Below the pieces are notes generated by a model. The model was not told the origin of the DNA. It made no database searches and was given only the letters and a program-made list of their open reading frames with translations. Source: a virus. From it: DNA of 34,052 nucleotides. This document shows positions 4,567 through 31,867 of the stretch, piece after piece. Each line of letters begins with the position of its first letter. The stretch's first letter is position 1. The DNA lies in IMG/VR virus record IMGVR_UViG_3300017613_000941, positions 1 through 34,052 of that record. The stretch is one strand, 5' to 3'. A program made the position numbers and the translations under genes.

Positions 4567-5019
4567 ATGCCTGGACGTAAGTATGATTGGGATTCAATAG
4601 GCAATGAATATATATGCGGACCAGATGAAGTCACACAAGCATTCCTTTGTGAAAAATATGGCTGTGCGACGGTAACAATTGCCAATAGAGCATCTAAAGA
4701 AGATTGGACGGGGCGCCGAATAGAATATAGAAACAAAGTTAATATGAAAATCCAGAAAAAGGCGATCACGCAAGAGGCTGAACTCAGGTCAAGACATATC
4801 AAGGTTGCTAAGTTGATGATGAGGAAGGCATACAGGAAATTGTTAAAGGTCTTACCAGACGATTTTGAGATGAATGAACTCCGGCTATGGATGAAGGATG
4901 CAAGTGATATTGAACGCAAGGCCGCAGGGATACCGGATGTTATCAGGTATGAGGATATGACCGATGAGGAGCTATTAGATGAGATCCGAGCTAAAATCGC
5001 AGACCTACAAGGATCTTAA
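4567..5019 (+). CDS. Terminase small subunit-like DNA-binding protein
   Basis: A 150-residue protein expected to recognise the packaging site and guide the large terminase. An N-terminal helix-turn-helix lies at about residues 5-48 (KYDWDSIGNEYICGPDEV, YGCATVTIANRASKEDW), then a long helical basic middle (RSRHIKVAKLMMRKAYRKLL) and an acidic C-terminus (EDMTDEELLDEIRAKI), the usual order in small terminases. The start is ATG 4567 with GGAG at 4555-4558; an upstream TTG is unlikely. It overlaps the large-subunit gene by 41 bases, which supports the assignment. Its HTH segment resembles the C-terminus of the protein encoded at 13546-14100. Confidence 0.72.
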   Translation: MPGRKYDWDSIGNEYICGPDEVTQAFLCEKYGCATVTIANRASKEDWTGRRIEYRNKVNMKIQKKAITQEAELRSRHIKVAKLMMRKAYRKLLKVLPDDFEMNELRLWMKDASDIERKAAGIPDVIRYEDMTDEELLDEIRAKIADLQGS

Positions 5020-8612: not shown

Positions 8613-10889
8613 ATGCCCTTTTTATTTGAAAAACTCCGATCTATCTTTCCAAAAAAAACAGAACTGCCCGCATTAACCGCCCATGACATCGAACTTGCGA
8701 CATATCGCGGAATGGTGGAAGCGAATGAGAAGCTTGCAGCCACAACGAAATCATTGCAACGCTGGCTTGATGGTCGAACCGGGGCTACAGATCAATATGA
8801 ACTTGGTGATGATCCAGGTACAAAGAAGTTGTTGGAGACTCCAAAAGATTGGGCGTACATACCGATAAAATCTATCTCCGATGTGATGATGTCAATTCCA
8901 TATCAGTTGAAAGCTGGACGTGTAATCGCTGGAAAGACCGAGGAACGAATCATAGATCAACATCCGGTTCTTGATCTGCTTGAGAAACCTAACCCTATCC
9001 AAACATACCCAGAGCTATGTTGGGAAACGCAGAGTGATCTATCGACTGCCGGGGATGCTTATTGGTTTGTTCCGCTGGAAGGGCCTGGCCGGACTCCATC
9101 AATGATTGTTAAACTGGGCGCCGGGAATGTCGGCAAAGTAATAAAATTAGACAAAACCAATGAGATTATATCATATCTGTATATGTGGCCGAATGGTAAA
9201 ACAGATTCACTGCCGGCGGAAAATGTGATTCACTTCCACCTGCCGGGTGGGTCCCCACTGAGAGAGATGGCCAGGGCCTTCGACGCCAACACGTACAGCG
9301 TGATCTATTTCAAGAACTTCTTTCAGAACAATGCACGCCCGGATTATGCAATCACGTTCCCGGACGGTTTAGACATCGATGATAAAGGGAAGAAGGCACT
9401 AAAAGATAAGATTCTGAGTCACCATCAGGGCGTAGATAAGAATTTCCTTCCTCTGATATTGGGTGAAAAGGCAGAAATAAAACCGTTAGTATTCTCGCAA
9501 GCTGATTCCAAGATATTGGCAATGTCGGGAATATCCAGGGACAAAATGTTTGCCGCCTATTCGTTTCCTGCCGCAAATGCCGGGCTTGTTGAAGGGCTTG
9601 GGAAGGCGAATGCATGGCAAGCAGACGCTAATTTCAGGAAGATGACTATCGCACCACGGTGCATATTATATTTCGGGAAGATAAATAATGACCTGATAAC
9701 AAAATACATGGCGCCGAGTGGTAATGGCAGAATCTATTTAGGTTACGATAATCCCGTTCCCGCCGACCAGGAAGAAAAACGCGCCCAGGAAAAACATGAT
9801 CTTGAAACTGGCAAAACAACGATTGATGAACTCCTAGAGATTAACGGGAAGAAGCCTATCGGTGGAGAATACGGGCAGATGCGGTTTATGATGAACAGCG
9901 TAAAACCGATTGAGATGTTGAATCAGCCAACTATGCCGATGATGAGCCTGGACGCCGGACAGAAGGAAATGAAGGTATTATCCGAACAGACTGACAAAGA
10001 ATTATGGATCACGGCATCGCAGAGTAAGGAATTATTGAAGCCTATTCAGGAAGAACTATTTAAACGGCACGTCCAACGGTTGAATAAATTTGAGGTTCCG
10101 TTCAGGAAGAAGTTGAAAACGGCGTTAGAGGCACAGGAAAAGCGGATGCTTAGGAATATTCGCGCCCACTATCCAAAGGCACTTGAAGATATCGCCCACA
10201 TAAAACATGACGACAAAGAAATACAGAGCAAGAAACGGCTGAAATATATCCGGGTGAAAGCATCATTCCCGCAAGCCGATCTGATTAACATCCGATCAGA
10301 GATCAGCACATTCGCAGCAATCGGCGATAAATATATCAGAGATATTTTCCTTCACATGCTGGATATGGTCATGGCAGAAATCGGTGGGCATTACCCGCCT
10401 GATCCATCGACGGCAAGAATTGTGAATTGGCTTAAAACCAGGGTTCGTAAATTCTCCGATGAAGTCGTGAAAACGTCGGTGGATGATGTGATGCGGTATG
10501 TTCGGCAGGGGCTTGTTGAAGGTCAATCTGTCGGAGAAGTAACCGAGTCATTGACAGAATTCTTTGAAGGTAAAACGGGTGAGCCGTGGGCCGATTATCG
10601 GTCACGGAGAATAGCCCGGACGGAGATGAACTCATCGGCGAACGCCGGCTCATTGGAAGGATATCGGCAGAGTGAAGTCGTTGCACAAAAGGGTTGGGCG
10701 TCGGCCATTGATGAGCGCACCAGGGATAATGCTGATTTTAGCCATGTGGATGCAAATGGCGAAAGAGTAAAAATAAATAGTATGTTCCAACGCACTGGCG
10801 AACCGTTGGAATTTCCGGGTGATCCGGGAGGGTCGGAAGGGAACATCATAAATTGTCGATGTTCCATCTATCCAGTAATACAACAATAA
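8613..10889 (+). CDS. Portal protein fused to MuF-like head morphogenesis domain
   Basis: A 758-residue fusion. Residues about 20-430 are an HK97-type portal, the dodecameric DNA channel at one prohead vertex (typical features: DWAYIPIKSISDVMMSIP, HPVLDLLEKPNP, a DxAxxVP-like GDAYWFVPLEG, and IHFHLPGGSPL). Residues about 560-755 resemble the SPP1 gp7/Mu gpF minor head domain, with RRIARTEMNSSANAGSLEGY, KGWASAIDERTRDNADFSH and the terminal NCRCSIYP. Most phages encode these as two adjacent genes. A helical charged linker (440-560) joins them. The start is ATG 8613, with AGGGGGA in the hairpin described above. First gene of the late operon, followed by the protease. Confidence 0.85.
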   Translation: MPFLFEKLRSIFPKKTELPALTAHDIELATYRGMVEANEKLAATTKSLQRWLDGRTGATDQYELGDDPGTKKLLETPKDWAYIPIKSISDVMMSIPYQLKAGRVIAGKTEERIIDQHPVLDLLEKPNPIQTYPELCWETQSDLSTAGDAYWFVPLEGPGRTPSMIVKLGAGNVGKVIKLDKTNEIISYLYMWPNGKTDSLPAENVIHFHLPGGSPLREMARAFDANTYSVIYFKNFFQNNARPDYAITFPDGLDIDDKGKKALKDKILSHHQGVDKNFLPLILGEKAEIKPLVFSQADSKILAMSGISRDKMFAAYSFPAANAGLVEGLGKANAWQADANFRKMTIAPRCILYFGKINNDLITKYMAPSGNGRIYLGYDNPVPADQEEKRAQEKHDLETGKTTIDELLEINGKKPIGGEYGQMRFMMNSVKPIEMLNQPTMPMMSLDAGQKEMKVLSEQTDKELWITASQSKELLKPIQEELFKRHVQRLNKFEVPFRKKLKTALEAQEKRMLRNIRAHYPKALEDIAHIKHDDKEIQSKKRLKYIRVKASFPQADLINIRSEISTFAAIGDKYIRDIFLHMLDMVMAEIGGHYPPDPSTARIVNWLKTRVRKFSDEVVKTSVDDVMRYVRQGLVEGQSVGEVTESLTEFFEGKTGEPWADYRSRRIARTEMNSSANAGSLEGYRQSEVVAQKGWASAIDERTRDNADFSHVDANGERVKINSMFQRTGEPLEFPGDPGGSEGNIINCRCSIYPVIQQ

Positions 10890-10902: not shown

Positions 10903-12171
10903 ATGTCTGATAATATGAAGCGAATCTTCTCTGAGTTAATCAGGGACAAGGGATCGAAAGATGATCTACCGCGTTTCTGGATCACAACTGACAAGCTGGA
11001 TCGAGATAATGAGATCATTGATCCGAAAGGGCTTGACGTGAAGAACTACAAAGAGACTGGTCTGCCCGTTTTGTACGGTCACGATGCCGGTAAATTTCCA
11101 GTAGGAAAAGGCGTTAGCTTGAAACGTGAAAAGAAAGACGGGAAAAACGGCTGGACAATGGGCGTTGAATTTATGCCGAAGGAAATGAACGAGGAAGCAT
11201 GGAAAGTGGGGCAAATGGTTGAACATGGCTGGATCAAGACCGGCTCTATCCGATTCCTTGTTAAGCCGAACGGCTATATCACTCCAAAGGATGATGATGA
11301 ATGGCGAACCATGTTCACAAAGACCGAGCTTGTCGAATTCTCAATCACCCCGATCCCGTCTAATGTCGAAGCCGGGCGGGTGAAGTCCGTGGATGAGTCA
11401 TTTGATGAGTTCCAGAAATCGAAGGAAAAGACAGCGGACATAACAATCAATGCCGCAGATGCTGATTCATTTGAGAAACACGTTGAAGATAATGGAATAG
11501 ATGAACAGAATTCAAAATTCTTTTACTGCCAGGAAATCAAAATGGATGAGGAAGGTGAAATTGATATATCATACGATCTGAATTCTACGTGTTGGATTGG
11601 TGAATATAAAGGATCGGGTGTTGATGATGGAACTGGCATAGATGCTCCAATAAAATGGTTCATGGATGATTCTGAAAATATTGAATGGCTCCCGTTTAAA
11701 GATTACACAGATCCAGAAAATGTCATAACACTAAGTTGGCTTGGCGACAGCGAAAAAGCCGGGGCCGTTCTCAATGCCAAAAACAAAGCTGATTTAAAAT
11801 CGGCACAAACGGCGATCCAGCGGGTTCTTGATTCTGCCGGAACTGAGGACGGGGACGAGGATGAAGAAGACGAGAAGGATCTTGAATCTGAAAACAATGC
11901 ACTCCGGGCCGAACTGGAAAAGCTGAAAGAGGCTATGGAAGGAAAACATAATATAAATGATGATGACGTATCCGATCCACCGGAAACAATCTTTGATAAT
12001 CTTATCGGAAAAGGCACCCTTCCAAAAGAAGGGCGGGGAGAAAAAACGGATAAATCCGGGCAGATTACTATTGATGAAACCGTGGTGGGAGAACTTGTCA
12101 AAAAGGCCATGCTGGACAAACAAAAAGAGGCCGCCGGGTACGTTAACATAGACAAAGTTTTTAAAGAATAG
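10903..12171 (+). CDS. Prohead protease fused to an inserted domain and scaffold-like C-terminus
   Basis: Residues 1-165 are an HK97-family (S78-type) prohead serine protease: His 60 in VLYGHD, Ser 115 in KTGSIRF, and the Glu 142/145 region before FSITPIPSN. This enzyme trims scaffold and capsid during maturation. Residues about 180-315 form an extra domain of unknown fold (CQEIKMDEEGEIDISYD, WIGEYKGSG, WLPFKDYTDP). Residues about 318-350 are an acidic coiled coil (SENNALRAELEKLKEAMEG), then a disordered, helical tail as in scaffold (delta) domains. At 422 residues it is about twice a protease alone. It lies between portal and capsid as expected. The protease-scaffold reading is strong; the middle domain is unexplained. 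Confidence 0.8.
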   Translation: MSDNMKRIFSELIRDKGSKDDLPRFWITTDKLDRDNEIIDPKGLDVKNYKETGLPVLYGHDAGKFPVGKGVSLKREKKDGKNGWTMGVEFMPKEMNEEAWKVGQMVEHGWIKTGSIRFLVKPNGYITPKDDDEWRTMFTKTELVEFSITPIPSNVEAGRVKSVDESFDEFQKSKEKTADITINAADADSFEKHVEDNGIDEQNSKFFYCQEIKMDEEGEIDISYDLNSTCWIGEYKGSGVDDGTGIDAPIKWFMDDSENIEWLPFKDYTDPENVITLSWLGDSEKAGAVLNAKNKADLKSAQTAIQRVLDSAGTEDGDEDEEDEKDLESENNALRAELEKLKEAMEGKHNINDDDVSDPPETIFDNLIGKGTLPKEGRGEKTDKSGQITIDETVVGELVKKAMLDKQKEAAGYVNIDKVFKE

Positions 12172-12181
12172 GAGAATAATT

Positions 12182-13417
12182 ATGCCTGAAAATATGAAAT
12201 TTGCAACACAAGCCGATCTCGATAAATATATCGAGGATCAGGTGCAAGAGCTTTGGGTTGAGAAAGCCAAAGAAGCCGAAGGCAAAAGCGGCGAGATGAT
12301 GAACAAGGCGTTTGAAATCCTGAATCAAGTCAATACCATGCGGGACAAATCTGAGATCAGGAATTGGGATAAGCGATTCAAGTCGCAAGCCCTGCAATCA
12401 GAACGGTATCGATTGGATTGTTCAAAATGGATTTGCGGACTCGTTCACCCTGAAACCAAAGACCAGGGATACAAGGACGCCGTGAAACGGATTGAGGACG
12501 CTGATGGTGAAGCTGGCACTATCGCCCGTGAGCGGGTCAAAGTCCTGACTGCCGGCGGTGCCGGTACTGGTGCCGAGTTCGTGCCGACCGGATTCAGAGA
12601 TGAAATCTGGATGAGAGTTGGTGCGTACAATGTGATGCGGCAAGTCTCGACTGTGATGCCGGTTGCCGGAAAGATGACATTACCTTCATCTGCAGCCAGG
12701 GCCAACGCATATTACACCGGTGAAAATGTAGCACCGGCAGCCGCTTCCGGTGTCGCAACTGCAAACGCGACACTCGATCCTGAACGCCTTGTAGCCTATG
12801 ACACGTATTCCAAAAAGTGGTTCCTCATGTCGGGAATCGACGTGACACAATTCTTAGCGAAGAAATTCGCGGAGGCGATTGCGTACAAGGAATGTTACCA
12901 ATTCACCAACGGAACCGGGGTTGCAATGCCAAATGGATTCACTGCTGTCGGGTATGCAGCCGTAAGTTCGGTTGCGATGGCCGGCGCAACGCTCGCCTAT
13001 GGTGATCTCATCAGCCTGGAAGATGACCTTGACGCGAAATACTGGCCGTATGCCCTGTATATGTTCAGTAAGAAAGGCTTCACCGAAACCAAGAAACTTG
13101 TTGACACCACCGGGCAACCGATCTGGACGCGGGCCGCCGAGGGCGAACCCGCCCAGGTGAACGGCTACAAGTACGTCGTCAATGAGTGCATCAGTGAGAC
13201 ATACGGAACATCCGGTGCCTATACGACCAGAATCTACTTCGGGGATTTTGAAGCGTATCATATCGGCGACCTGCAAGTTCTCACAATGGGAACTAGCGAC
13301 AGTGCCGGTACTGATGATTTCATCAAGGACAACATCAAGTTGAAAATCGTCAGTTACAATGACGGCCTGCTTTTAGACGAAGCGGCCATCAATTATCTGA
13401 CTGGAGTGCCTTGCTAG
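12182..13417 (+). CDS. HK97-fold major capsid protein
   Basis: A 411-residue capsid subunit. An N-terminal helical, charged delta-like segment (about 1-110: ADLDKYIEDQVQELWVEKAK) is probably removed by the protease. The mature part opens near TAGGAGTGAEFVPTGFRDEI and shows the usual E-loop/P-domain order (RQVSTVMPVAGKMTLPS, YTGENVAPA, AYDTYSKKWFLMSGIDVTQF). The ending KLKIVSYNDGLLLDEAAINYL is also typical of HK97-like capsids. AGGAG at 12170-12174 precedes ATG 12182. It directly follows the protease. It is unusual only in what comes after: a hairpin-rich gap and modification genes rather than connectors. Confidence 0.9.
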   Translation: MPENMKFATQADLDKYIEDQVQELWVEKAKEAEGKSGEMMNKAFEILNQVNTMRDKSEIRNWDKRFKSQALQSERYRLDCSKWICGLVHPETKDQGYKDAVKRIEDADGEAGTIARERVKVLTAGGAGTGAEFVPTGFRDEIWMRVGAYNVMRQVSTVMPVAGKMTLPSSAARANAYYTGENVAPAAASGVATANATLDPERLVAYDTYSKKWFLMSGIDVTQFLAKKFAEAIAYKECYQFTNGTGVAMPNGFTAVGYAAVSSVAMAGATLAYGDLISLEDDLDAKYWPYALYMFSKKGFTETKKLVDTTGQPIWTRAAEGEPAQVNGYKYVVNECISETYGTSGAYTTRIYFGDFEAYHIGDLQVLTMGTSDSAGTDDFIKDNIKLKIVSYNDGLLLDEAAINYLTGVPC

Positions 13418-13438
13418 AAAGGAGCGAACTAATCACCA

Positions 13439-13527
13439 CTACCATTTAGCACTGCTACGTGGTAGACAATAGGCGGGCACCTGTCGGGATTCCAAGATGC
13501 TCCTTGCCCGGCAGACTGCCTGCCGCC
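13439..13527 (+). ncRNA. Two strong hairpins in the gap after the capsid gene
   Basis: The gap 13418-13545 has no convincing gene. Hairpin one: CTACCA 13439-13444 with TGGTAG 13460-13465, inner TAGC/GCTA around a triloop. Hairpin two: 13472-13479 with 13517-13527 (three-base bulge), continuing as CTGTCGGG 13481-13488 with CCCGGCAG 13507-13514, loop 13489-13506. No T-run follows. AAAGGAG at 13418-13424 has no start codon after it. It may be a processing, stability or regulatory element of the late message. Confidence 0.5.
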
Positions 13528-13545
13528 TAAAAAGGAGAAGCGAAA

Positions 13546-14100
13546 ATGAAAATGGTTAAAGTAAAAGTATTGGCTCCGAATCTGACAATTCTTGGACAGA
13601 AACGGAAGAAAGATGAAACGGTTTATGGTGTGGATGCCGTTACTGCATTGAGATTGCAAGACACCGGCGTGCTCAAGATTCTTGATCGGGTTGATTCTGA
13701 CTTACACAAGAAGTCTGAGGCAGATTTTGAAGTACTGCCGGGGAGTGTGAAAGTGAAAGTCCTTAAACCGATCAATATCAGGGGCAGGCGGCGATCCAAA
13801 GACGAGATCATTGACGGCGTTGATCCTCTTGTAGCCGATAGGCTTTCCAAGAAAGAATACGGTCTGGGATATGTAGAGAAACTTCATGACAGCAAAGTAA
13901 GATCAGCTCCTGACAAGCAGTTGAAATCGACGAGAGGCGTGGCAAAAAACAAAGGGCCTAAACACGATTGGGAAGCAATCAAGAACGATTATGAGTCCGG
14001 CGTGTCATTGACCTTCATCGAATCAACATATAATATCAAGCCGTGGGTCGTGAAACGTGAAGCTAAAAAACGCAATTGGAAAAATCCGGTGAACGTATGA
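13546..14100 (+). CDS. Duplicated-module protein with terminase-type HTH at the C-terminus
   Basis: A 184-residue basic protein. Residues 4-47 and 68-113 are two copies of one module: VKVKVLxP at the start, then K/R-rich KKDE/SKDE, GVD, a RL pair and a terminal KIL/EKL. Residues 139-178 (KHDWEAIKNDYESG, FIESTYNIKPWVVKREAKKR, NW) resemble the HTH of the small terminase at 4567 (KYDWDSIGNEYICG, NRASKEDW). AAGGAG precedes ATG 13546, and the end overlaps the methyltransferase gene by ATGA. Possible roles are a DNA-linked capsid accessory protein or a regulator of late genes. No family name is justified. Confidence 0.6.
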   Translation: MKMVKVKVLAPNLTILGQKRKKDETVYGVDAVTALRLQDTGVLKILDRVDSDLHKKSEADFEVLPGSVKVKVLKPINIRGRRRSKDEIIDGVDPLVADRLSKKEYGLGYVEKLHDSKVRSAPDKQLKSTRGVAKNKGPKHDWEAIKNDYESGVSLTFIESTYNIKPWVVKREAKKRNWKNPVNV

Positions 14101-14765
14101 GAACACGAATAGATGAAACAACGATAGTCTGCCCTGGAGATGCAGAGATTAATGGGAAAAGGTTGATAGACATATTGTATCAGGAAATCTGTGTGGATTG
14201 TGTCTATGAAAATGATCTGGTATCACCGAAAGACTGTGATGTAGTCGTGGATATAGGGGCAAACATCGGCCTCTTTTCCATGCGTGCCGCTGAATTGGGA
14301 GCGAAAACAATCATTGCATTTGAGCCTGATTTTGCCAATTTTCAGTCACTGGTGAAGAACAAGCCGATTAACTGCCTTGCCTATCAGTTGGCAGTATCAG
14401 ACAAGGACGGCAAAGATTATTATTATGAAACAACGAATTGCGGCGGCCATAGCATTATCGACCTGGATCGTGGGGACATAAAGCATAAATGTTACCATGT
14501 CACTCTACCCATGATATTCAGATCACAGTCTATTGGCCGGATTAACTTCCTGAAAATGGATTGTGAGGGTGCCGAGGCAAAGATCTTCACAGCCACACCG
14601 GATGATTATCTGAAACGGATAGATCAGATTGCTATGGAATATCACCACGAGCTTATTCCAGACTTCCCATACGGGCCTTTCCTGGATCGGTTGCGGAAAC
14701 ATTTTGAGGTTCGCACAGAGCCAGCCGGGGCGCAGGTAATGATATATGCAAAGAGGTTGAAATAA
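14097..14765 (+). CDS. FkbM-family SAM methyltransferase (copy 1)
   Basis: A 222-residue enzyme with the FkbM signatures: SAM motif I VVDIGANIGLFS at 50-61, FEPD at 75-78 (acid that binds the SAM ribose), INFLKMDCEGAE at 149-160 and EYHHE at 181-185. FkbM enzymes usually O-methylate sugars or polyketides. It is ATGA-coupled to the preceding gene and shares one base (TAATG) with the glycosyltransferase gene that follows, so the pair is co-expressed. The likely acceptor is a sugar added by that neighbour, on virion protein or host glycan; this is inference. It has all canonical residues, unlike the copies at 30417 and 31148. Confidence 0.85.
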   Translation: MRTRIDETTIVCPGDAEINGKRLIDILYQEICVDCVYENDLVSPKDCDVVVDIGANIGLFSMRAAELGAKTIIAFEPDFANFQSLVKNKPINCLAYQLAVSDKDGKDYYYETTNCGGHSIIDLDRGDIKHKCYHVTLPMIFRSQSIGRINFLKMDCEGAEAKIFTATPDDYLKRIDQIAMEYHHELIPDFPYGPFLDRLRKHFEVRTEPAGAQVMIYAKRLK

Positions 14766-15940
14766 TGAGAGTAGAATTTCGCCGAAAACATAGGGAACCA
14801 CAATTGCATACAAAGTTCGACATCAATGAAGTGGCGAACATACCGGCGCATCTCGCCTTCCACCTAAATAACTTACAGATTTGCAAGATATTAGAGCCGG
14901 ACCCACATCCTGATCCAAAATTAAGAAACGCATTTAATGCCTTACGGATTGATCTTGGAGTAAGGCCGTATGATCCTCATGTTATTTTTGGTGGCAAGCG
15001 GATATTTGCAAATATTCGGAATGGAGATAAAATTCTGATAATCCGAAAGTACGGCGGGTTCGGCGACATACTGATCTGCTCATATTTGTTGTCCGTGATA
15101 CATGAAAAATATCCAGACAATGAATTGACCTTTTCCACGCCGACAGGGCATCATGAATGGTTTCGTGGTATTCCGTGGCTGAAACTGATCAAGTATGATG
15201 GCGTGTTTGAGAATTACAGACAAATCCGGGGCGGCGTGATCCAGTCAGAGGTTGCCGACAGATACGACATTGTGGAGGATGTGTCTACTCCCTGCCATAT
15301 CTGGGAATCATTGTTCGGCGGGTTTGGTTTCGATAAGAATGGCCTAAAATGGCAAAACAGGATAGAAATCTGGGGACATTGGATCGGGATAAATAATATC
15401 AAGAACCCTAAATCCTGCATTAAAATCAGGAATAAGGAAATCAAGGATGCGCGAGATAAATATGTCCCTGAGTTGAACGGAAAGCCACTATGCATTTTGG
15501 CGCCCATGTCGGCATTAAAGGAGAAAAATTATCCCTATTATCGGCAAATAGAAAATGAGTTGTCCAGTAAATACAGAGTGATTTATATGGCTTATCCTGA
15601 GCAGATACCGGGTGCGATTAAAACAAAAACACTCCGGGAAATGACGGCACTTGTCGGGGCGGCCGATCTTGTTGTTGCCGTGGACTCTGCAATTATGCAC
15701 GCCGCCGCCGTTATGAACCGGCCTTGCGTTGGGATCTTCAATATCAATGACGGCGAAACATACTGTAAATTCTATCCAACAGTTCACCCTGTCCAGCTAT
15801 GCGATACTCCCTGCATCATGAAACGAGCGCATGAGTGTGATGCCAATGGAAAACGGGTAGATCAAATCTGCTATCGCCCTAATTCAGTGACAACGGTCAT
15901 GGCAAAAGTCAGAATAATTGAAAGGAAATATAAATTATGA
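14765..15940 (+). CDS. GT9-type (heptosyltransferase-like) glycosyltransferase
   Basis: A 391-residue GT-B protein. The N-terminal domain carries RKYGGFGDILI at 94-104, the GT9 hallmark (R-x-GG-x-GD). The C-terminal domain carries LREMTALVGAADLVVAVDSA (290-309), then MHAAAVMNRPCVGIF, the donor-binding motif with Asp 307 and His 312. A cysteine-rich tail (CDTPC, HEC, QICY) may bind metal. GT9 enzymes normally move ADP-heptose onto LPS core; in a phage the acceptor could be LPS or a virion protein. It lies between two methyltransferases in tightly overlapping frames, forming a sugar-modification unit inserted between capsid and connector genes. Family is confident; donor and acceptor are unknown. 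Confidence 0.82.
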   Translation: MRVEFRRKHREPQLHTKFDINEVANIPAHLAFHLNNLQICKILEPDPHPDPKLRNAFNALRIDLGVRPYDPHVIFGGKRIFANIRNGDKILIIRKYGGFGDILICSYLLSVIHEKYPDNELTFSTPTGHHEWFRGIPWLKLIKYDGVFENYRQIRGGVIQSEVADRYDIVEDVSTPCHIWESLFGGFGFDKNGLKWQNRIEIWGHWIGINNIKNPKSCIKIRNKEIKDARDKYVPELNGKPLCILAPMSALKEKNYPYYRQIENELSSKYRVIYMAYPEQIPGAIKTKTLREMTALVGAADLVVAVDSAIMHAAAVMNRPCVGIFNINDGETYCKFYPTVHPVQLCDTPCIMKRAHECDANGKRVDQICYRPNSVTTVMAKVRIIERKYKL

Positions 15941-16413
15941 TCAGCTTAAATCTTGGGTGCGGCGAGAAAATGATTGAAATGGATAATTGGATCAATGTTG
16001 ATTTAAGGAAATTATATCCCAAATCGGCGGTATTTCTCCGTCATGACGTCCGATATTTAAGAGAGAAGTTCCAAGACGGCTCCATTGATGAAATACTAAT
16101 GGAAGATATTCTTGAGCATTTTACCGAGACTGAGCAACGGGCAATGATAAAATCTTGTAACATGCTATTGAAGAAAGGCGGCAAGATCACGGTGGAAACG
16201 CCGGTCATTGAATTGCTTATGAAGTGGGCAAAGACAAATTCCCCGGAAGACGTTGCACATCGGATTTTCGGTGCCCAGGATTACGAGCTTAATGTCCATA
16301 AATGGATCTGGTCAAAAGGGGATTTGCTAAAATTATTCCGCAAGAGCAAGTTCAAAATCCTCAAAACACGCACCACGCACGACACTAATATCAGGCTTGA
16401 GGCGGTGAAGTAA
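15937..16413 (+). CDS. Small class I SAM-dependent methyltransferase
   Basis: A compact 158-residue methyltransferase of the type-11 kind. Motif I is LNLGCG at 4-9, an acid at the end of beta-2 in NVDLRK, then a DILEHF motif at 57-62 and MLLKKGGKITVETP at about 76-89. It lacks most of the usual C-terminal extension, so the substrate pocket may be completed by a partner. The first base pairs overlap the glycosyltransferase stop (ATGA), and its stop overlaps the connector gene start (TAATG). It therefore completes the three-enzyme cassette. Substrate unknown: sugar methylation is plausible by context. Confidence 0.8.
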   Translation: MISLNLGCGEKMIEMDNWINVDLRKLYPKSAVFLRHDVRYLREKFQDGSIDEILMEDILEHFTETEQRAMIKSCNMLLKKGGKITVETPVIELLMKWAKTNSPEDVAHRIFGAQDYELNVHKWIWSKGDLLKLFRKSKFKILKTRTTHDTNIRLEAVK

Positions 16414-16979
16414 TGGCGGCAGAAATAATTGTCACTTATACCGACTTGGAAACCTTCATCAACCGCGAATTTTCAGCGGCTGAAAGGACACGATTGACAA
16501 CCTTGATCGCGCAGGTTGAAGCCTATATCCGATTGAATATTATTGATTGGAACCGTCAGGAAGCCACGGCGAAAACATTTGACGGGAACGGTTGCCGGTA
16601 TCAATACCTGTTTCACTGGCTGGATTCATGCACATCGGTGGTCGAAGATGATAGCACAGTCGATACGGATGATTACCGGAACGAGAGCTATATGCTGGTC
16701 CATGACGACCGCACAAAATGGTCAACACTTGACGACCAGAATCTTGTTGTGACGGGTGATTGGGGCTTTGCGGACTCAGCGGATTGTCCAGAAGATTTAA
16801 AAATGTTGATCATGTTCATGTGTACCGACCTCTTGACAGATTATTTCAGGAAGGATAATATCAAGTCTGAGAAGGTCGGGGACGTGGCATTTTCCTACGG
16901 CGATATAGATGCTAGATTTGGCCGGAGTTCGATTGTCCGGTCGATGAAAATGAAATACAGGGGACCGGTGATAGGTTGA
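16413..16979 (+). CDS. Head-tail connector (adaptor, gp6/gp15-like)
   Basis: A 188-residue protein expected to bind under the portal after packaging. The helical N-terminus (TDLETFINREFSAAERTRLT, LIAQVEAYIRLNI) and central beta part (RYQYLFHWLDSC, YMLVHDD) with a final helix (DLKMLIMFMCTDLLTDYFR) match the HK97 gp6/SPP1 gp15 pattern. The position before head-closure and gp10-like genes agrees. TAATG overlap with the methyltransferase shows that the modification genes are read in the same transcript. Assigned from order and secondary-structure pattern, not strong motif identity. Confidence 0.68.
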   Translation: MAAEIIVTYTDLETFINREFSAAERTRLTTLIAQVEAYIRLNIIDWNRQEATAKTFDGNGCRYQYLFHWLDSCTSVVEDDSTVDTDDYRNESYMLVHDDRTKWSTLDDQNLVVTGDWGFADSADCPEDLKMLIMFMCTDLLTDYFRKDNIKSEKVGDVAFSYGDIDARFGRSSIVRSMKMKYRGPVIG

Positions 16980-17296
16980 TGAGTTTAGAATCTATGTTTA
17001 TCCATGAGTTTGATGTGTGGCGGGTGACTGAGGCCACGGATTCGGATACCGGCGAAGTGGTGGAAACGCTGGCCGTGAACAGTACTGGGAACCGGGGCTA
17101 TATCTACCAGAAGACAGCGTTCATGTGGCAGAATGACCGGGGCAAGATGGTTGGGACAAAGCGGATGGATTGTGGAACGGATGTAGATATACAGGAGAAT
17201 GATGAAGTGCGGTATGACGGGCATCGGTATTGGGTCATAACAGCGGATAAGAAGGGATTTGTGCCACATATCGAATGTGTGATGAGGGTCAAATAA
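16979..17296 (+). CDS. Head closure / head-tail joining protein
   Basis: A 105-residue beta-rich protein (FDVWRVTEATDSDTGEVVET, GYIYQKTAF, RMDCGTDVDIQENDEVRYDG, RYWVITADKKG) typical of SPP1 gp16/FII-like stoppers that seal the connector. ATG 16979 overlaps the previous stop by one base; an in-frame TTG three bases upstream is less likely. The stop overlaps the next start in TAATG. Gene order (adaptor, stopper, gp10-like, tail terminator) supports the call. Confidence 0.65.
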   Translation: MSLESMFIHEFDVWRVTEATDSDTGEVVETLAVNSTGNRGYIYQKTAFMWQNDRGKMVGTKRMDCGTDVDIQENDEVRYDGHRYWVITADKKGFVPHIECVMRVK

Positions 17297-17790
17297 TGAC
17301 GTTTTATGTCGGCTCGACAATTAAATTAGATCAGGCGGCTATCGCAAAATATGTGAAGGCCAAAGAGAGGCACGTTCTCACTACGGCAGGAATGATAATC
17401 GAGGCAGACGTGAAAGAGATTTTGAGTAATAGTTATTCACCTTCATCCAACAGACGGACATATACTGTTACAGAAGGCGGAAAGAAGCACACGGCATCGG
17501 CTCCGGGTGAGCCACCGGCTGTTTTGACAGGTCGCCTCCGGGCTTCGATTACGTGGGATTTTTCCAGTGCGATAAAAACTGTCAAGATCGGGAGTTCAAA
17601 TCAGTTGATGCGAAATCCTGAGATGCCGGTAGTGGGCGTGCCTGTGAATTATGCAGTAGAACTTGAATATGGTACGGACAAAGTTGCGCCGCGCCCTTTC
17701 ATGCGCCCGGTGCGAGACAAATATCATGGGAACAATAGACTGGCTGAAAGGATCGGGCGACACTTGAGAGCTATCGGGAAGGCTGGATAA
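17296..17790 (+). CDS. HK97 gp10-like tail completion protein
   Basis: A 164-residue protein with the HK97 gp10 pattern: an N-terminal helix with LTTAGMIIEADVKEIL, the conserved SAPGEPPAVLTGRLRASI, then VGVPVNYAVELEYGTDKVAPRPFMRPV. This family sits at the head-tail joint. ATG 17296 (TAATG) is chosen over an earlier in-frame start that lies inside the previous gene. It ends one base before the next start. Confidence 0.82.
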   Translation: MTFYVGSTIKLDQAAIAKYVKAKERHVLTTAGMIIEADVKEILSNSYSPSSNRRTYTVTEGGKKHTASAPGEPPAVLTGRLRASITWDFSSAIKTVKIGSSNQLMRNPEMPVVGVPVNYAVELEYGTDKVAPRPFMRPVRDKYHGNNRLAERIGRHLRAIGKAG

Positions 17791-17791
17791 C

Positions 17792-18199
17792 ATGGCAAAC
17801 ATCGCAGACATACAGAAAAGTTTAAGGGCTGTTGTATTGGCTGATGCTTTTGTGTCCGCTAAAATCGGGACGCGATTATATGATCTTTGGAGAAAAGGAA
17901 CTACAGGCACATATCCAATGGCGCACATTGGACTCATCACGCAGGGCGAAGAAACGAGGGCCGGATTTAAATTTATGACGTTTCAGATATCCACTTTCAC
18001 TGATAATAGAGATATGATTGAAGCGGCAGAGATCGACAAATTGATCGGCGATACACTCGACCAACGAAATTTGAACATGGCGGCTTATGGTTGGTCATGT
18101 CACTGGATTGACAAATTAGGAGCGAATTTAATCGGAATTGATGATGCTGGAATATGCCATGTGTCGTCAGATTACCGAATAACAATATCAGAAGATTAG
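17792..18199 (+). CDS. Tail terminator-like protein (DUF3168-type)
   Basis: A 135-residue alpha/beta protein following the gp10-like gene, the usual place of the tail terminator that caps the finished tube. ADIQKSLRAVVLADAFVSAK, GTRLYDLW, PMAHIGLIT and QISTFTD fit the DUF3168 order, and AAEIDKLIGDTLD matches its helix. The ending HVSSDYRITISED is a last strand. Assignment rests on order and overall pattern. Confidence 0.68.
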   Translation: MANIADIQKSLRAVVLADAFVSAKIGTRLYDLWRKGTTGTYPMAHIGLITQGEETRAGFKFMTFQISTFTDNRDMIEAAEIDKLIGDTLDQRNLNMAAYGWSCHWIDKLGANLIGIDDAGICHVSSDYRITISED

Positions 18200-18213
18200 C
18201 GAGGAGGTCAATA

Positions 18214-18741
18214 ATGGCTAAAAAAACTCTTGTTATGCCGGTGAATGTGTATTGGGACACGGCAGACGTGAATCAGCAGATCATCACCGAGGGCGGGGTC
18301 GTGGTGAAATACGAGCCGCAAACCGTCCAGACATTTACGGATGAAACCGGGGGGAACATCTATGATGAATTCTCCAATGGAGCTATCGTGGGCCTTACAG
18401 TAAATGCCTGTGAATGGGATCTGGATATTATGGATATTCTTTTCGGCGCAGCCTCAACAATGACCGGAAGCGGTGACACGGCTCATGTGGAGATCCGGGC
18501 CAATGTCGGGACATCCTATCGGGATAACGCAAAGCAGGTTATTCTTAAAGGGATCGTTGGGGGATCTGAGGATTCGACCGAGGAATATTGGATCACATTG
18601 CCGCTATGCTATCCGAAAGGGCCGGGAGAAATCTCGTTGGTCAAGGATGCACAGTTCGTAATGGCGACAGAATTCACGGTCTTTCCTGATCCCGACAATG
18701 ACAACAGAACTCATTGGTTTGGCCTTGAATCCGGTTCGTAA
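18214..18741 (+). CDS. Major tail tube protein
   Basis: A 175-residue protein with the tube-protein layout: short N-terminus (LVMPVNVYWDTADVNQQIIT), an acidic loop region, GLTVNACEWDLDIMDILFGA, and a final strand with MATEFTVFPDP. AGGAGGT at 18202-18208 is a full complement to the 16S anti-Shine-Dalgarno, as expected for a highly made virion protein. ATG 18214 is chosen because of it. It lies between the tail terminator and chaperone genes, as in other siphoviruses. Confidence 0.8.
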   Translation: MAKKTLVMPVNVYWDTADVNQQIITEGGVVVKYEPQTVQTFTDETGGNIYDEFSNGAIVGLTVNACEWDLDIMDILFGAASTMTGSGDTAHVEIRANVGTSYRDNAKQVILKGIVGGSEDSTEEYWITLPLCYPKGPGEISLVKDAQFVMATEFTVFPDPDNDNRTHWFGLESGS

Positions 18742-19368: not shown

Positions 19369-21528
19369 ATGGCGACTAAATTCGGCACAGGATATATTGA
19401 ACTCGGTATGCGAGACAGTAAATTTCGCGCCGGTCTAAAGTCTGCTGTCGGAACGATGGTAAAAGCGGCGGCTGTGGCCGGTGGATTGACCGCCGCTGTT
19501 TTTTATCTCTCCAAGAAAATAGCTAAGTCTGCTGATGAAATTGGCAAGATGTCGATCCGTACAGGCGAATCCGCAGAGAATCTGCAAAAATGGAGCTTTG
19601 CCGCTGAATTGGGCGGGGCTTCGGCCAAGTCATTTACCACCGGATTAAAGAAAATATCACAAGCGGCTTATGAGGCCAGCCGAGGAACCAAGACATATAC
19701 GGATTTGTTTAAGGCTGTCGGCGTTGAATGGGATGCAGGGGGCGGGAGACTTCGCAAACTGACACCTATGATAATGGACATGGCCGATAAATTCCAGACC
19801 ATGACGGACACCACGAAAAAGGCGGCTCTCGCTTCTCAATTATTGGGCCGAGCTGGAATGGAAATGATACCTATGTTGAACATGGGATCGAAGGCAATCA
19901 AAGAACAATTCCAGTTGCTTGAAGACCTCGGAGCCGTTATGGGCGGTGATCTAATCAAGGCATCGGCCACATTTAATGACCAATTGCTTGTGTTGACAAA
20001 GATACTTGACGCCATAAAAATATCATTCGGAAACGTATTCATTCCGATGCTGAATAGAGTTGTGGGCGGGATGATATCATGGTGGAAGGCCAACAAAGAT
20101 TTGATCCTTCAAAACATGGAGAAGGTTTTTACCGATATGGCCGGGGCTTTGAATGATATGTTCACCACGCTTGCTATTCTTGGGCCGATGATTCAAACGA
20201 CATTTAGCGGAAGCATGAGGGGATTGAAGGCTTTCAATATTGGCCTTTCTACTATCGCCCTGAGCTTCTCAATTATCATTGACAAAATCGCCGAAATATC
20301 TGATTACATTTTGGAAAGTAAAGACGCCAGGAAGCCGCTTGAAAACCTGTTAGCATTTACAGCCGTTCCAGCATGGATGAAGATATTTCAGGCTGGAAGC
20401 CTTGACGATTTGGCCGAAGGAGTCAAACGAGTACAGGCGGGCAGGGCCGGTGAAAGCAAGAAATATATTGACCTTATACATAAGCTGATATACGAATTTG
20501 AACATGGAGCGACTGCCGGAGAAGATTTTTCCGGTAAGATTCTCAAAATAATCAAAGCGATGGAAGGGCTGAAATCCAGTACAACGGAAACAACGAAAGC
20601 CATTGCTGAATTCGGAAAATTATCAGCCGATACTTATGATATTAGAGCACAGATGGGGGGATTTGGAGAGCTTGCACTTGGGCCGTTGGGTCAATTTATC
20701 GGTGATTGGATGGAAGCCGCTGGGCATGATTGGGCACAAGAATTGAGTGACGTTCAGGCTCCTTTGAGAGATTTATCTCTTTTACTTGGTGACGAATTAA
20801 CACAATCCTTTCTAGCAATTCGTGAGGCTATGGGTGGGGCCGAAACAGGGACAACGGGAATCTGGGAGTCAATGTTTTTGACAGATGAACTCCAAGAACG
20901 ATATGACGATTGGAAATTGTGGGCCGATGAATTCGTTGCAAAATGGCGATGGCTCGGTATGAGTATGCAAGAAGTCACAAGTACAGTTCAAGGCTTGATC
21001 ACTGGATTTTTTTCAGATATGATGGTCAGTGGAGTTAAAAGTGCAGGTAAGAAGTTCCTGGCAGCTATTATCGGGATAATGGGGAAGCTGGTAATAAGGT
21101 ATGGTTCTGCTACATTTTTTACAGGTTTGGCCAATTATACTATGGGCCTTTCTGATCCATTAAAAGGCGGTTTTCCAAATCCTTACCAGGTCGCTATGGG
21201 GAAAAAACAGATGGTAACAGGGGCTTTATTAATGGCTGGTGGTGGGGCATTGAGCGGTATTTCTTCTGTCATCGGTGGAACGTCTGGCGGCGGCGGTGGG
21301 ACATCATTTCAATCTGGAATCGCCCGGCCTTATGGTGAAACTGTCCAGCCGGTAACTTTTGACACGTCAACAGGCGGTGGAACTGTGATAAACGTCTACG
21401 CAAATGACGCTCAATCTTTCAATGATATGTGCGTTAATAATCCGAGTGGAATTATAACAGCCTTGACCAATGCAGTTGATGATAATGACGAATCTGTAAG
21501 AAATGCGTTAGATGGAGCGAGGTATTAA
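19369..21528 (+). CDS. Tape measure protein
   Basis: A 719-residue protein whose helical length sets tail length; at the usual 0.15 nm per residue it predicts a tail near 108 nm. The N-terminus (GYIELGMRDSKFRAGLKSAV) is typical, with a hydrophobic helix at about 27-48. MSIRTGESAENLQKWSFAAE, QLLGRAGMEMIPML and similar segments are usual in this family. Further hydrophobic helices (ILGPMIQTTF, FLAAIIGIMGKLVI) may insert in the host membrane. The C-terminus is Gly-rich then acidic. It directly follows the chaperones. No lytic domain is visible. Confidence 0.9.
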   Translation: MATKFGTGYIELGMRDSKFRAGLKSAVGTMVKAAAVAGGLTAAVFYLSKKIAKSADEIGKMSIRTGESAENLQKWSFAAELGGASAKSFTTGLKKISQAAYEASRGTKTYTDLFKAVGVEWDAGGGRLRKLTPMIMDMADKFQTMTDTTKKAALASQLLGRAGMEMIPMLNMGSKAIKEQFQLLEDLGAVMGGDLIKASATFNDQLLVLTKILDAIKISFGNVFIPMLNRVVGGMISWWKANKDLILQNMEKVFTDMAGALNDMFTTLAILGPMIQTTFSGSMRGLKAFNIGLSTIALSFSIIIDKIAEISDYILESKDARKPLENLLAFTAVPAWMKIFQAGSLDDLAEGVKRVQAGRAGESKKYIDLIHKLIYEFEHGATAGEDFSGKILKIIKAMEGLKSSTTETTKAIAEFGKLSADTYDIRAQMGGFGELALGPLGQFIGDWMEAAGHDWAQELSDVQAPLRDLSLLLGDELTQSFLAIREAMGGAETGTTGIWESMFLTDELQERYDDWKLWADEFVAKWRWLGMSMQEVTSTVQGLITGFFSDMMVSGVKSAGKKFLAAIIGIMGKLVIRYGSATFFTGLANYTMGLSDPLKGGFPNPYQVAMGKKQMVTGALLMAGGGALSGISSVIGGTSGGGGGTSFQSGIARPYGETVQPVTFDTSTGGGTVINVYANDAQSFNDMCVNNPSGIITALTNAVDDNDESVRNALDGARY

Positions 21529-30416: not shown

Positions 30417-31151
30417 ATGAATTACAATGATTTGGAAGTTATGATGATTGCAGGAGATCAACTTTCCGAGGTTGTTCGCCTCGGAGACATTGAAAACGTG
30501 GAGATCGTTAATCAGGCCAAAAGGATTTTCGGGGGGGCAGAAGATTTGCTCTGGGAGTCTAAAAAATGTCATGTTGAAAAGGGCGATATTGTTGTGGAGA
30601 TAGGGGCTTGCATCGGTCTTTTCTCATTACGGGCTGGATTGCAGGGGGCGAAAAGAATCGTGTTATTTGAGCCGAATGATCCGAACCGATACTGTGCGAC
30701 GTATAACGCAAATCTTGGTTTCGCAAGTCGCAGGTCAAAATATCCGGTGCGGGTGATCAATGCGGCGGTATGTGATTATGAGGGAGTTGCTCCATTTTTT
30801 GACGTTCCGGCAATCGGTCAACATGGGATGTTCAAATTGAATCGGGCTGTCGATGCAAGGCAAATCAAAACCATGACGCTTAATTCGCTATTTCGCAAAC
30901 GGATTGTGACAAAAATCGACTTCCTTAAATGTGACGGGAACGGAGCCGAAACGCTGATATTTGATGGGATATCAAACACCAATTTGAAAAAGATCAGAAA
31001 GCTCTCTGTCCAATATCATCATCATGTGGAGGAAAGATGTTCAGGTTGGAGAAAATCATTTCTTGCAAGGCTGAAAAAACTGGGATACAATATAGAAACA
31101 GGGCCGAGAAATAGCTGGAATGATGACTGGATTAGGGCGTGGCGGTCATGA
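30417..31151 (+). CDS. FkbM-like methyltransferase (copy 2, altered motifs)
   Basis: A 244-residue protein with the FkbM fold pattern: motif I VVEIGACIGLFS at 59-70, FEPN at 84-87, KIDFLKCDGNGAE at 166-178 and VQYHHH at 198-203. Compared with copy 1, motif I has D-to-E and N-to-C changes, FEPD became FEPN, DxEGAE became DxNGAE, and EYHHE became QYHHH. AAAAGGAG precedes ATG 30417. It follows the fibre genes directly and is ATGA-coupled to copy 3. It may still bind SAM with altered catalysis, or have a structural or different transferase role. Confidence 0.75.
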   Translation: MNYNDLEVMMIAGDQLSEVVRLGDIENVEIVNQAKRIFGGAEDLLWESKKCHVEKGDIVVEIGACIGLFSLRAGLQGAKRIVLFEPNDPNRYCATYNANLGFASRRSKYPVRVINAAVCDYEGVAPFFDVPAIGQHGMFKLNRAVDARQIKTMTLNSLFRKRIVTKIDFLKCDGNGAETLIFDGISNTNLKKIRKLSVQYHHHVEERCSGWRKSFLARLKKLGYNIETGPRNSWNDDWIRAWRS

Positions 31152-31867
31152 AAATAAAAATGATCAAAGAAGGCGGCGGTTTTGAGTTTATTGAACATAA
31201 TCAGACTGGAAATGTAAATATTGCCCGCCGCATCAGAGGCACTTGGAATATTCCACCTAATCAGCGATATTGGGAATGTCAGGAATGTAAGCCGGAAAAA
31301 GGCGATGTGGCGGTCGAAGTCGGGGCTGACATAGGTATTTTTGCCATCCACGCCGGGGCTTGCGGTGTATCTCAATATATCGGATTCGAGCCAAACATAC
31401 AAAATCATACCTGCGCAAAACACAACGCTACAATAGGGCGTGATGGATTCGGCGAATATGCGATTGTCTATAATTGGGCCGTTTCCAATATCGTAGATGA
31501 TGCTGATTTTTATGAAGGGAACGGGATCACGGCTCATGGATTGATCGATCAAGGGATGGATGAAAATAAACGAACTGTCCATGTTGTGACGCTGGATTGG
31601 CTGTTTGATATTGGCATCATTGAGTGGATTGACTTTCTGAAGGTCGATTGTAACGGGAGTGAGGCGGCGGTCTTCGATGGATTATCAGATGCGAATCTTG
31701 CCAAAGTGAAAAAAATCTCCGTACAATATCATCATCTGTTAGATGATTTTAGACCGGGCTGGTATGGGATATTCAGGCAGCGACTCCGGGATAATAATTT
31801 CAATTTCAAAATTCAAACTGTCAACGAGTTCGGCGATTCCGTTCTTGTCGCATGGAGGGAGAAATAA
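31148..31867 (+). CDS. FkbM-like methyltransferase (copy 3, altered motifs)
   Basis: A 239-residue tandem paralogue of copy 2. Motif I is VEVGADIGIFA at 56-66, then GFEPN at 79-83, WIDFLKVDCNGSE at 160-172 and SVQYHH at 191-196. It shares with copy 2 the DxNGxE and VQYHH changes and the phrase FDGxSxxNLxKxxKxSVQYHH, so the two arose by duplication before diverging. ATG 31148 overlaps the copy 2 stop. Its stop overlaps the next gene as TAATG. Placement beside the fibre genes suggests action on fibre or receptor sugars. Confidence 0.75.
   Translation: MKIKMIKEGGGFEFIEHNQTGNVNIARRIRGTWNIPPNQRYWECQECKPEKGDVAVEVGADIGIFAIHAGACGVSQYIGFEPNIQNHTCAKHNATIGRDGFGEYAIVYNWAVSNIVDDADFYEGNGITAHGLIDQGMDENKRTVHVVTLDWLFDIGIIEWIDFLKVDCNGSEAAVFDGLSDANLAKVKKISVQYHHLLDDFRPGWYGIFRQRLRDNNFNFKIQTVNEFGDSVLVAWREK

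What the first reader, a model, noticed from the sequence alone, without database searches (positions are those of the whole stretch)
14097..16413. Methyltransferase-glycosyltransferase-methyltransferase unit inside the head module
FkbM, GT9 and class I methyltransferase genes overlap end to start and are embedded between the capsid and connector genes, so they share the late transcript. GT9 enzymes normally build LPS core. Placement suggests glycosylation plus methylation of virion proteins, or late rebuilding of host surface sugars. I know of no standard module with this layout.
Basis: partly seen in the sequence, partly recalled or inferred. Interest (0 to 1): 0.7.

Follow-up and report, generated by a model that had tools for sequence, protein, structure and literature searches.

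The report
Virion-sugar gene cassette in phage head
Three overlapping genes between this phage's capsid gene and its head-tail connector gene, a sugar-transfer enzyme flanked by two methyl-transfer enzymes, belong to a rare cassette found in the capsid-to-tail gene block of four other uncultured phages, and most likely coat the phage particle's own proteins with methylated sugars.

Summary
FkbM (14097-14765), GT9 (14765-15940) and a small class I methyltransferase (MT11, 15937-16413) overlap by 4, 1, 4 and 1 nt with each other and with the flanking genes, between an HK97-type capsid gene and the head-tail adaptor.

It is not a one-off. The same GT9 subfamily (33-39% identical) occurs in only four other IMG/VR records and in none of 50,697 phage or 72,556 plasmid records. 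In all five records GT9 is coupled to an MT11 gene of the same subfamily, usually with a further methyltransferase. It lies either between capsid and head-tail adaptor (window, L269, L348) or between tail terminator and major tail protein (L349, L350). In L269 and L348 the GT9 N-terminus is a small domain that otherwise stands alone behind the capsid gene. The window has two more FkbM genes behind its tail fibres.

Best reading: a virion-modification cassette that glycosylates and methylates capsid and/or tail-tube proteins, working like the Corndog-type cassette of mycobacteriophages. 'No standard module' needs correcting, but the enzyme families, conserved slot and domain fusion are new. Host-surface modification is less likely. 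No chemistry was testable.

The parts
12182..13417 (+). major capsid protein (HK97 fold), probable substrate candidate
   Evidence: PF05065 4.4e-44, phrog_10
13418..13545 (+). intergenic stretch with strong RNA hairpins between capsid gene and the cassette operon
   Evidence: MFE -47.3 kcal/mol, z -3.6
13546..14100 (+). g184: two DUF7210-type repeats plus a TerS-like C-terminal stretch; translationally coupled to FkbM1
   Evidence: PF23843 34.4 bits (cut-off 27), phrog_1206 5.9e-5; both repeats recovered by a DUF7210-like profile of which they were members
14097..14765 (+). FkbM1: SAM-dependent O-methyltransferase of the FkbM family
   Evidence: PF05050 3.4e-12, TIGR01444 1.1e-22; relative in L348 in the same slot
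14765..15940 (+). GT9: GT-B glycosyltransferase of family 9, new phage subfamily; residues 1-44 modelled as a separate mini-domain
   Evidence: PF01075 6.5e-10; relatives L269, L348a/b, L349, L350 at 33-39%; AlphaFold model pLDDT 68, Foldseek 3tov 1.9e-9, WaaF 1.3e-8, WaaC 3.4e-8, TibC 1.5e-7
15937..16413 (+). MT11: small class I methyltransferase, always next to this GT9
   Evidence: PF08241 1.1e-4; L269 relative 35%, 2e-26; subfamily alignment
16413..16979 (+). head-tail adaptor, coupled to the cassette
   Evidence: phrog_442 5.8e-15
18154..18741 (+). probable major tail protein (tail tube), second substrate candidate
   Evidence: phrog_2175 (protein with Ig domain) 1.5e-18, position between neck genes and tape measure; 28-37% identical to the genes next to the cassette in L349, L350 and further downstream in L348
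30417..31151 (+). FkbM2 behind tail-fibre genes
   Evidence: PF05050 8.2e-9, TIGR01444 5.6e-16; 32% identical to FkbM1
31139..31867 (+). FkbM3, overlapping FkbM2
   Evidence: PF05050 3.3e-11, TIGR01444 1.7e-17; 30% identical to FkbM1

Best explanation
The three genes are a virion-modification cassette expressed with the head and tail genes. GT9 takes a nucleotide-activated sugar from the host pool (ADP-heptose or similar; no sugar-nucleotide synthesis gene was recognised in the window) and transfers it to an abundant structural protein made from the same transcript, the major capsid protein and/or the major tail (tube) protein. FkbM1 and MT11 then O-methylate the sugar, giving small methylated glycans on the particle surface. 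FkbM2 and FkbM3 probably do the same for glycans on tail fibres. In relatives the GT9 N-terminal DUF7210-like domain, otherwise a stand-alone protein behind the capsid gene, would bring the enzyme to the assembling head. Shown: gene content, overlaps, families, fold, conserved slot, and the fusion in relatives. Inferred: acceptor, sugar, order of steps, and surface shielding or adhesion as the benefit.
For: Four relatives of GT9 exist in IMG/VR, all in the capsid-to-tape-measure block. Three (L348, L349, L350) were found by GT9 sequence alone, without any positional bias. GT9 and MT11 occur together in all five records, with a further SAM methyltransferase in four, mostly by 1-4 nt overlaps or gaps of a few nt. 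The slot alternates between just before the head-tail adaptor and just before the major tail protein, whose homologue lies in the window. A profile made only from stand-alone post-capsid small proteins finds, as its next best hits among 17,242 ORFs, the N-termini of the L269 and L348 GT9s (6.7e-7, 6.9e-5, 5.1e-4). The window model shows a separate N-terminal mini-domain. The GT9 motif residues D101 and D307/H312 are invariant in six sequences, so the enzymes look active. L204, a phage with the same TerL clade and portal/protease/capsid order, has capsid-small gene-coil-adaptor-like-neck without enzymes, as for a dispensable add-on. Methyl/sugar genes next to capsid genes also occur in unrelated phages L009, L090, L093/L167, L110 and L169, and a glycosyltransferase behind the capsid gene in TurkishDelight. 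Known precedent of the same logic: Corndog (PMC4351075; PMC11600133).
Against: No chemistry was tested. Virion glycosylation is inferred from gene location and one known analogue in a different host group; the Corndog record was not held, so homology to its enzymes was not tested. The window GT9 N-terminus is too diverged to be recognised as DUF7210-like by sequence alone. Within the TerL clade FkbM genes are rare (2 of 40 records), so this is an accessory, not a core head function. A gene can ride in a late operon without acting on the virion. GT9's nearest solved relatives by fold include the LPS heptosyltransferases WaaC and WaaF. The host is unknown.
Confidence: 0.66

Rival explanations
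1. Host-surface modification: late in infection, or in a lysogen, the enzymes add and methylate sugars on LPS or another envelope glycan, blocking re-adsorption of sister phages.
For: By fold the GT9 is closest to a GT9 of Veillonella and to the LPS heptosyltransferases WaaF and WaaC; modification of host LPS by phage-encoded enzymes is established (cited in PMC5537653).
Against: No flippase or lipid-linked glucosyltransferase was recognised; immediate neighbours on both sides are head genes coupled by overlaps. Three relatives found without positional bias all lie in the structural block. The enzyme fails the cut-offs of all LPS heptosyltransferase models. Two relatives carry a head-module domain on GT9. 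TerL relatives held in bacterial genomes come mainly from Streptomyces and Chloroflexota, groups that mostly lack LPS (own knowledge), though the actual host is unknown.
Confidence: 0.2
2. Modification of phage DNA: the glycosyltransferase and methyltransferases act on hypermodified bases.
For: Phage glycosyltransferases on DNA are well known (cited in PMC12619734).
Against: No base-hydroxymethylating or nucleotide-modifying gene was recognised among the ORFs scanned; FkbM enzymes act on hydroxyls of small molecules and glycans (own knowledge); the location is in the head block, not the replication block.
Confidence: 0.04
3. Chance cargo: a moron-like insertion into a permissive gap behind the capsid gene, with no functional tie to the virion.
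For: Sporadic within the TerL clade (2 of 40 with FkbM); L204 lacks it; the post-capsid gap also holds different sugar genes in other phages.
Against: The same GT9-MT11 pair is kept together in five diverged phages (capsid proteins about 28-30% identical to the window in the two closest) in only two slots, both before an abundant virion protein or its adaptor; no terminator-like site above background bounds it (5 found against 7.3 expected) and it is coupled to both neighbours; GT9 is fused to a head-module domain in two relatives.
Confidence: 0.1

Closest known systems
Corndog / cluster O mycobacteriophage virion-modification genes (O-methyltransferase gp35, glycosyltransferases gp36 and gp37, N-acetylglucosaminyltransferase gp38)
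   Same: Methyltransferase plus glycosyltransferase run inside the structural operon; enzymes made in infected cells but not identified in virions; capsid and tail tube reported as the modified proteins (PMC4351075, PMC11600133).
   Different: Sits between portal and protease rather than after the capsid gene; contents are one O-methyltransferase and three glycosyltransferases, against FkbM, one GT9 and a small MT11; no DUF7210-type fusion described; mycobacterial hosts. Sequence homology not tested, as the record was not held.
Aah/TibC protein O-heptosyltransferases (TIGR04414, GT9)
   Same: GT9 enzymes that glycosylate a protein rather than LPS; fold match to TibC 1.5e-7. TibC-type genes occur in FkbM-bearing phage records found here.
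   Different: The window GT9 has no TIGR04414 hit at E 0.1.
LPS heptosyltransferases WaaC / WaaF / WaaQ (GT9)
   Same: Family, GT-B fold, Asp and His motifs.
   Different: Far below the curated equivalog cut-offs (best 32 against 185.3 bits); embedded in a head gene block; extra N-terminal mini-domain.
Streptomyces phage TurkishDelight gp20 glycosyltransferase
   Same: Related terminase (46% identity); glycosyltransferase between capsid and major tail genes.
   Different: Tandem GT4-type enzyme, no GT9; no methyltransferase recognised beside it.

Membership tests
Glycosyltransferase family 9 (PF01075) | Profile score above the curated cut-off | tested here: met
   39.2 against 22 bits
Glycosyltransferase family 9 (PF01075) | GT-B fold of heptosyltransferase type | tested here: met
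   Model pLDDT 68, pTM 0.60; Foldseek 3tov 1.9e-9, 1psw 1.3e-8, 2h1h 3.4e-8, TM about 0.5
Glycosyltransferase family 9 (PF01075) | Conserved N-terminal G-x-GD and C-terminal D-x4-H motifs | tested here: met
   GGFGD (D101) and DSAIMH (D307, H312), invariant in 6 sequences
LPS heptosyltransferase (TIGR02193/02195/02201) | Equivalog cut-off | tested here: not met
   32 / 29.4 / 27.1 bits against 185.3 / 134.6 / 170.2
Aah/TibC protein O-heptosyltransferase (TIGR04414) | Equivalog cut-off | tested here: not met
   No hit at E 0.1
FkbM methyltransferase (TIGR01444 / PF05050) | Curated cut-off | tested here: met
   81 against 37.7 bits; 47.2 against 22.7 bits
Class I methyltransferase type 11 (PF08241) | Curated cut-off | tested here: met
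   23.2 against 21.2 bits, narrow margin
Virion-glycosylation cassette of Corndog type | Methyltransferase and glycosyltransferase genes inside the structural operon | tested here: met
   against PMC4351075
Virion-glycosylation cassette of Corndog type | Glycan on capsid and tail-tube proteins | not testable with these tools
   Needs virion mass spectrometry
Virion-glycosylation cassette of Corndog type | Homologous enzymes | not tested
   Corndog records not in the collections
Phage seroconversion (gtr) cluster | Adjacent GtrA flippase and GtrB bactoprenol glucosyltransferase | tested here: not met
   Immediate neighbours are g184 and the head-tail adaptor

The most novel reading that the evidence does not exclude
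A new phage-specific GT9 subfamily whose N-terminal DUF7210-type domain docks it onto the assembling head or tail tube, so that glycosylation and double methylation of virion proteins is coupled to assembly. It would be an assembly-guided virion glycosylation system that moves between the head slot and the tail-tube slot.
Probability: 0.3. Interest if true: 0.78.

Novelty: new variant of a known kind. Interest (0 to 1): 0.6.

Why it matters
Virion glycosylation is documented for a handful of mycobacteriophages. A conserved, rare GT9/MT cassette tied to capsid and tail-tube genes in phages outside that group, and similar islands beside capsid genes in several unrelated phages, suggest that sugar coating of virions is much more widespread. 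Its placement names two concrete substrates (capsid protein, tail-tube protein) and a possible targeting domain, so the question becomes directly testable by mass spectrometry. If true it bears on phage adsorption, antibody recognition and particle stability.

Tried and rejected
Direct searches with the window GT9 and MCP as single sequences found nothing in viral contigs, and GT9 found nothing in phages: the pattern search reaches only close relatives, and relatives came only through alignments. The single-sequence AlphaFold model was useless (pLDDT 32) and was not used. I first thought the GT9s co-occurring with FkbM in large phages were the same enzyme; most that were tested are TibC-type and were set aside as a separate observation. 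A 206-aa ORF of L169 looked FkbM-like by eye but had no significant hit and is not counted. I expected the DUF7210 similarity to be visible in the window GT9 itself; it is not significant there and the claim is restricted to L269 and L348. Empty-site homology of the small genes of L204 to the window genes is positional only, with no significant sequence match. DNA modification and plain moron readings were considered and ranked low. Base rates in capsid-profile records: PF00535 over cut-off in 2 of 50, PF05050 in 3 of 50, MT11-like in 4 of 80 loci, so such genes are not common near this capsid type.
Full report
WHAT IS THERE. The window is a whole 34,052-base IMG/VR-type virus record, possibly a fragment of a longer genome, of a tailed phage. 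All the main genes run on the + strand: HNH nuclease, replication initiator, TerL 4979-6523, portal-MuF fusion 8613-10889, protease 10903-12171, HK97 capsid protein 12182-13417, g184 13546-14100, then the three genes of the finding, head-tail adaptor 16413-16979, closure 16976-17296, neck 17275-17790, probable major tail protein 18154-18741, tape measure 19369-21528, J-like tail protein 21886-25674, fibre-like proteins to about 30,400, and an endolysin at the end. The three genes are FkbM (14097-14765), GT9 (14765-15940) and a small type-11 methyltransferase, here MT11 (15937-16413). They overlap each other and both neighbours by 1 or 4 nt (ATGA, TAATG, ATGA, TAATG), so translation is probably coupled from g184 through to the adaptor. 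Codon usage and GC fit the neighbours. There is no clear sign of a separate transcription unit: terminator-like sites are at background, and promoter-like sites are above shuffles over the whole region but are not diagnostic. A strong RNA hairpin region lies between the capsid stop and g184.

Two further FkbM genes (30417-31151 and 31139-31867) overlap each other directly behind the fibre-like genes. They are 32% and 30% identical to FkbM1. The phage therefore carries three FkbM enzymes, one behind the capsid gene and two behind the fibres.

THE CASSETTE IS CONSERVED. Single-sequence searches found nothing. A capsid-profile scan returned L269, in which the window GT9 has a 34% match over 388 columns (3e-76) and MT11 a 35% match (2.3e-26). 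A GT9-pair profile then found exactly four records in IMG/VR: L269 (as L347), L348, L349 and L350; a wider profile gave the same set. A relative of the subfamily (L348 GT9a) matched none of 50,697 phage records and none of 72,556 plasmids, and the window GT9 matched no phage record. Maps. L269: capsid (28%), four genes, DUF7210-like gene, a 110-aa ORF, GT9, a second methyltransferase-like gene, MT11, adaptor, closure, neck. L348: capsid (30%), DUF7210-like gene, GT9, GT9, MT11 with a second C-terminal methyltransferase-like domain, FkbM (32% to FkbM1), adaptor, closure, terminator, major tail, tape measure. L349: neck-like gene, terminator, GT9, GT9, MT11 fused to the same second domain, major tail, tape measure. 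L350: neck-like gene, terminator, GT9, MT11, major tail, tape measure. The second methyltransferase-like genes, and some connector genes of L349 and L350, were named by reading motifs and order, not by a profile search. Junctions are mostly 1-4 nt overlaps or gaps of a few nt. L348, L349 and L350 were found with no use of position, yet all three lie between capsid or neck and tape measure.

A HEAD-MODULE DOMAIN ON GT9. g184 contains two DUF7210-type repeats (one over the Pfam cut-off), and similar small proteins follow the capsid gene in L269, L348 and L090. A profile built only from these stand-alone sequences was run on 17,242 ORFs. After its own members the next hits were the N-termini of L269 GT9 (6.7e-7), L348 GT9b (6.9e-5) and L348 GT9a (5.1e-4); the next ORF of another kind had 0.068. 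The window GT9 N-terminus aligns with these domains and is modelled as a separate strand-rich mini-domain with one helix (residues 1-44, local pLDDT mostly 73-87), but it is not recognisable by sequence alone.

IS GT9 A WORKING ENZYME. The motifs GGFGD and DSAIMH are present; D101, D307 and H312 are invariant in the six sequences. The AlphaFold model made with six sequences (pLDDT 68) matches GT9 of Veillonella (3tov), WaaF, WaaC and TibC. It is not an LPS heptosyltransferase by curated cut-offs and not a TIGR04414 member.

HOW COMMON IS THE PLACEMENT. Independent phages with other capsid types also carry methyl/sugar genes in or beside the head block. L009: major head protein, epimerase, transketolase, asparagine synthase-like gene, cytidylyltransferase, FkbM, TylF-like, MT11, glycosyltransferase. 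L090: capsid, portal, putative sugar genes (named by eye), MT11, neck. L093/L167: portal-MuF, capsid, MT11 directly behind it, a weak GT2-like ORF. L169: capsid, two ORFs, MT11 with a weak GT2-like C-terminus, adaptor-like gene, Phage_tail_S gene. L110 clade: major head protein, MptE-like, MT11, MptE-like, tail gene. TurkishDelight: capsid, two genes, tandem GT4-type enzyme, major tail. L041 and MW202512 have FkbM beside terminase and portal genes. In ordinary capsid-profile records such genes are uncommon (PF00535 over cut-off in 2 of 50, PF05050 in 3 of 50, MT11-like in 4 of 80). In the TerL clade only 2 of 40 have FkbM, and L204, with the same head order, has none in this slot. It is therefore an accessory with a preferred place.

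HOW IT MOST LIKELY WORKS. Inference: GT9 puts a host-derived activated sugar on the capsid and/or tail-tube protein while these are being made from the same transcript; the methyltransferases O-methylate the sugar; FkbM2 and FkbM3 serve fibre glycans. The alternation of the cassette between the slot before the adaptor and the slot before the major tail protein fits substrates in both places, as reported for cluster O mycobacteriophages. The likely benefit (shielding, stability, or weak adhesion) is open. Host-surface modification remains possible at about 0.2.

COMPARISON WITH WHAT IS KNOWN. Corndog carries an O-methyltransferase, two glycosyltransferases and an N-acetylglucosaminyltransferase between portal and protease. 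They were found in infected cells but not in virions, and the authors proposed capsid modification because capsid peptides were under-detected (PMC4351075). A later note states that these enzymes modify capsid and tail tube, citing Freeman 2023 (PMC11600133); Freeman 2023 itself was not held. The window cassette works like this, but whether its enzymes are homologous to Corndog's was not tested; its enzyme families, slot, second FkbM pair and (in relatives) domain fusion differ. It is filed as a new variant of a known kind.

LIMITS. Host unknown; no chemistry; five records only, all uncultured; bacterial genomes were not searched for this GT9 subfamily because the tool could not be centred on them.

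Noticed in passing
30417-31151 and 31139-31867: Two overlapping FkbM methyltransferase genes directly behind the fibre-like genes, paralogues of FkbM1; probably fibre glycan methylation.
   Followed up: partly
L012:7596-8846, L002:5986-7278, L030:12934-14181, L006:10191-11468, L067:13647-14906, L005:8138-9361: FkbM-bearing phage records encode Aah/TibC-type protein O-heptosyltransferases (TIGR04414 228-387 bits against cut-off 200; TibC in PDB 7e-60), in ORFs that are often multi-domain or next to FkbM-containing ORFs; L006 has a 1424-aa ORF with 333 Gly-x-Ser/Thr-type triplets just upstream. Suggests O-heptosylated, methylated phage fibres.
   Followed up: partly
L018, L028, L104, L112, L122 and others: Recurrent viral gene run with FkbM, MT11 and a short (about 150 aa) GT9-like ORF, in L018 and L028 next to SGTSG-repeat ORFs.
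   Followed up: partly
13418-13545: Strong RNA hairpin region between the capsid stop and the next gene (z -3.6); L348 has a GC-rich inverted repeat in the same place.
   Followed up: no
13546-14100: g184 joins two DUF7210-type repeats to a C-terminus that looks like a small-terminase helix-turn-helix (phrog_1206), although it lies far from TerL.
   Followed up: no
L110:6412-9208 and relatives L101, L128: MptE-like (DUF115-type) genes flank MT11 directly behind the major head and a structural protein gene; similar domains occur in flagellin glycosylation (own knowledge).
   Followed up: no
L009:4037-13007: Possible sugar-nucleotide and glycan synthesis island (epimerase, transketolase, asparagine synthase-like, cytidylyltransferase, methyltransferases, glycosyltransferase) immediately behind the major head gene.
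   Followed up: partly
L217:8533-9234: FkbM gene just upstream of TerL in a phage of the window's TerL clade.
   Followed up: no
L269:6910-8202: 430-aa ORF made of repeats of the type xKxALYRI between the capsid gene and the cassette; possible head fibre or glycan acceptor.
   Followed up: no
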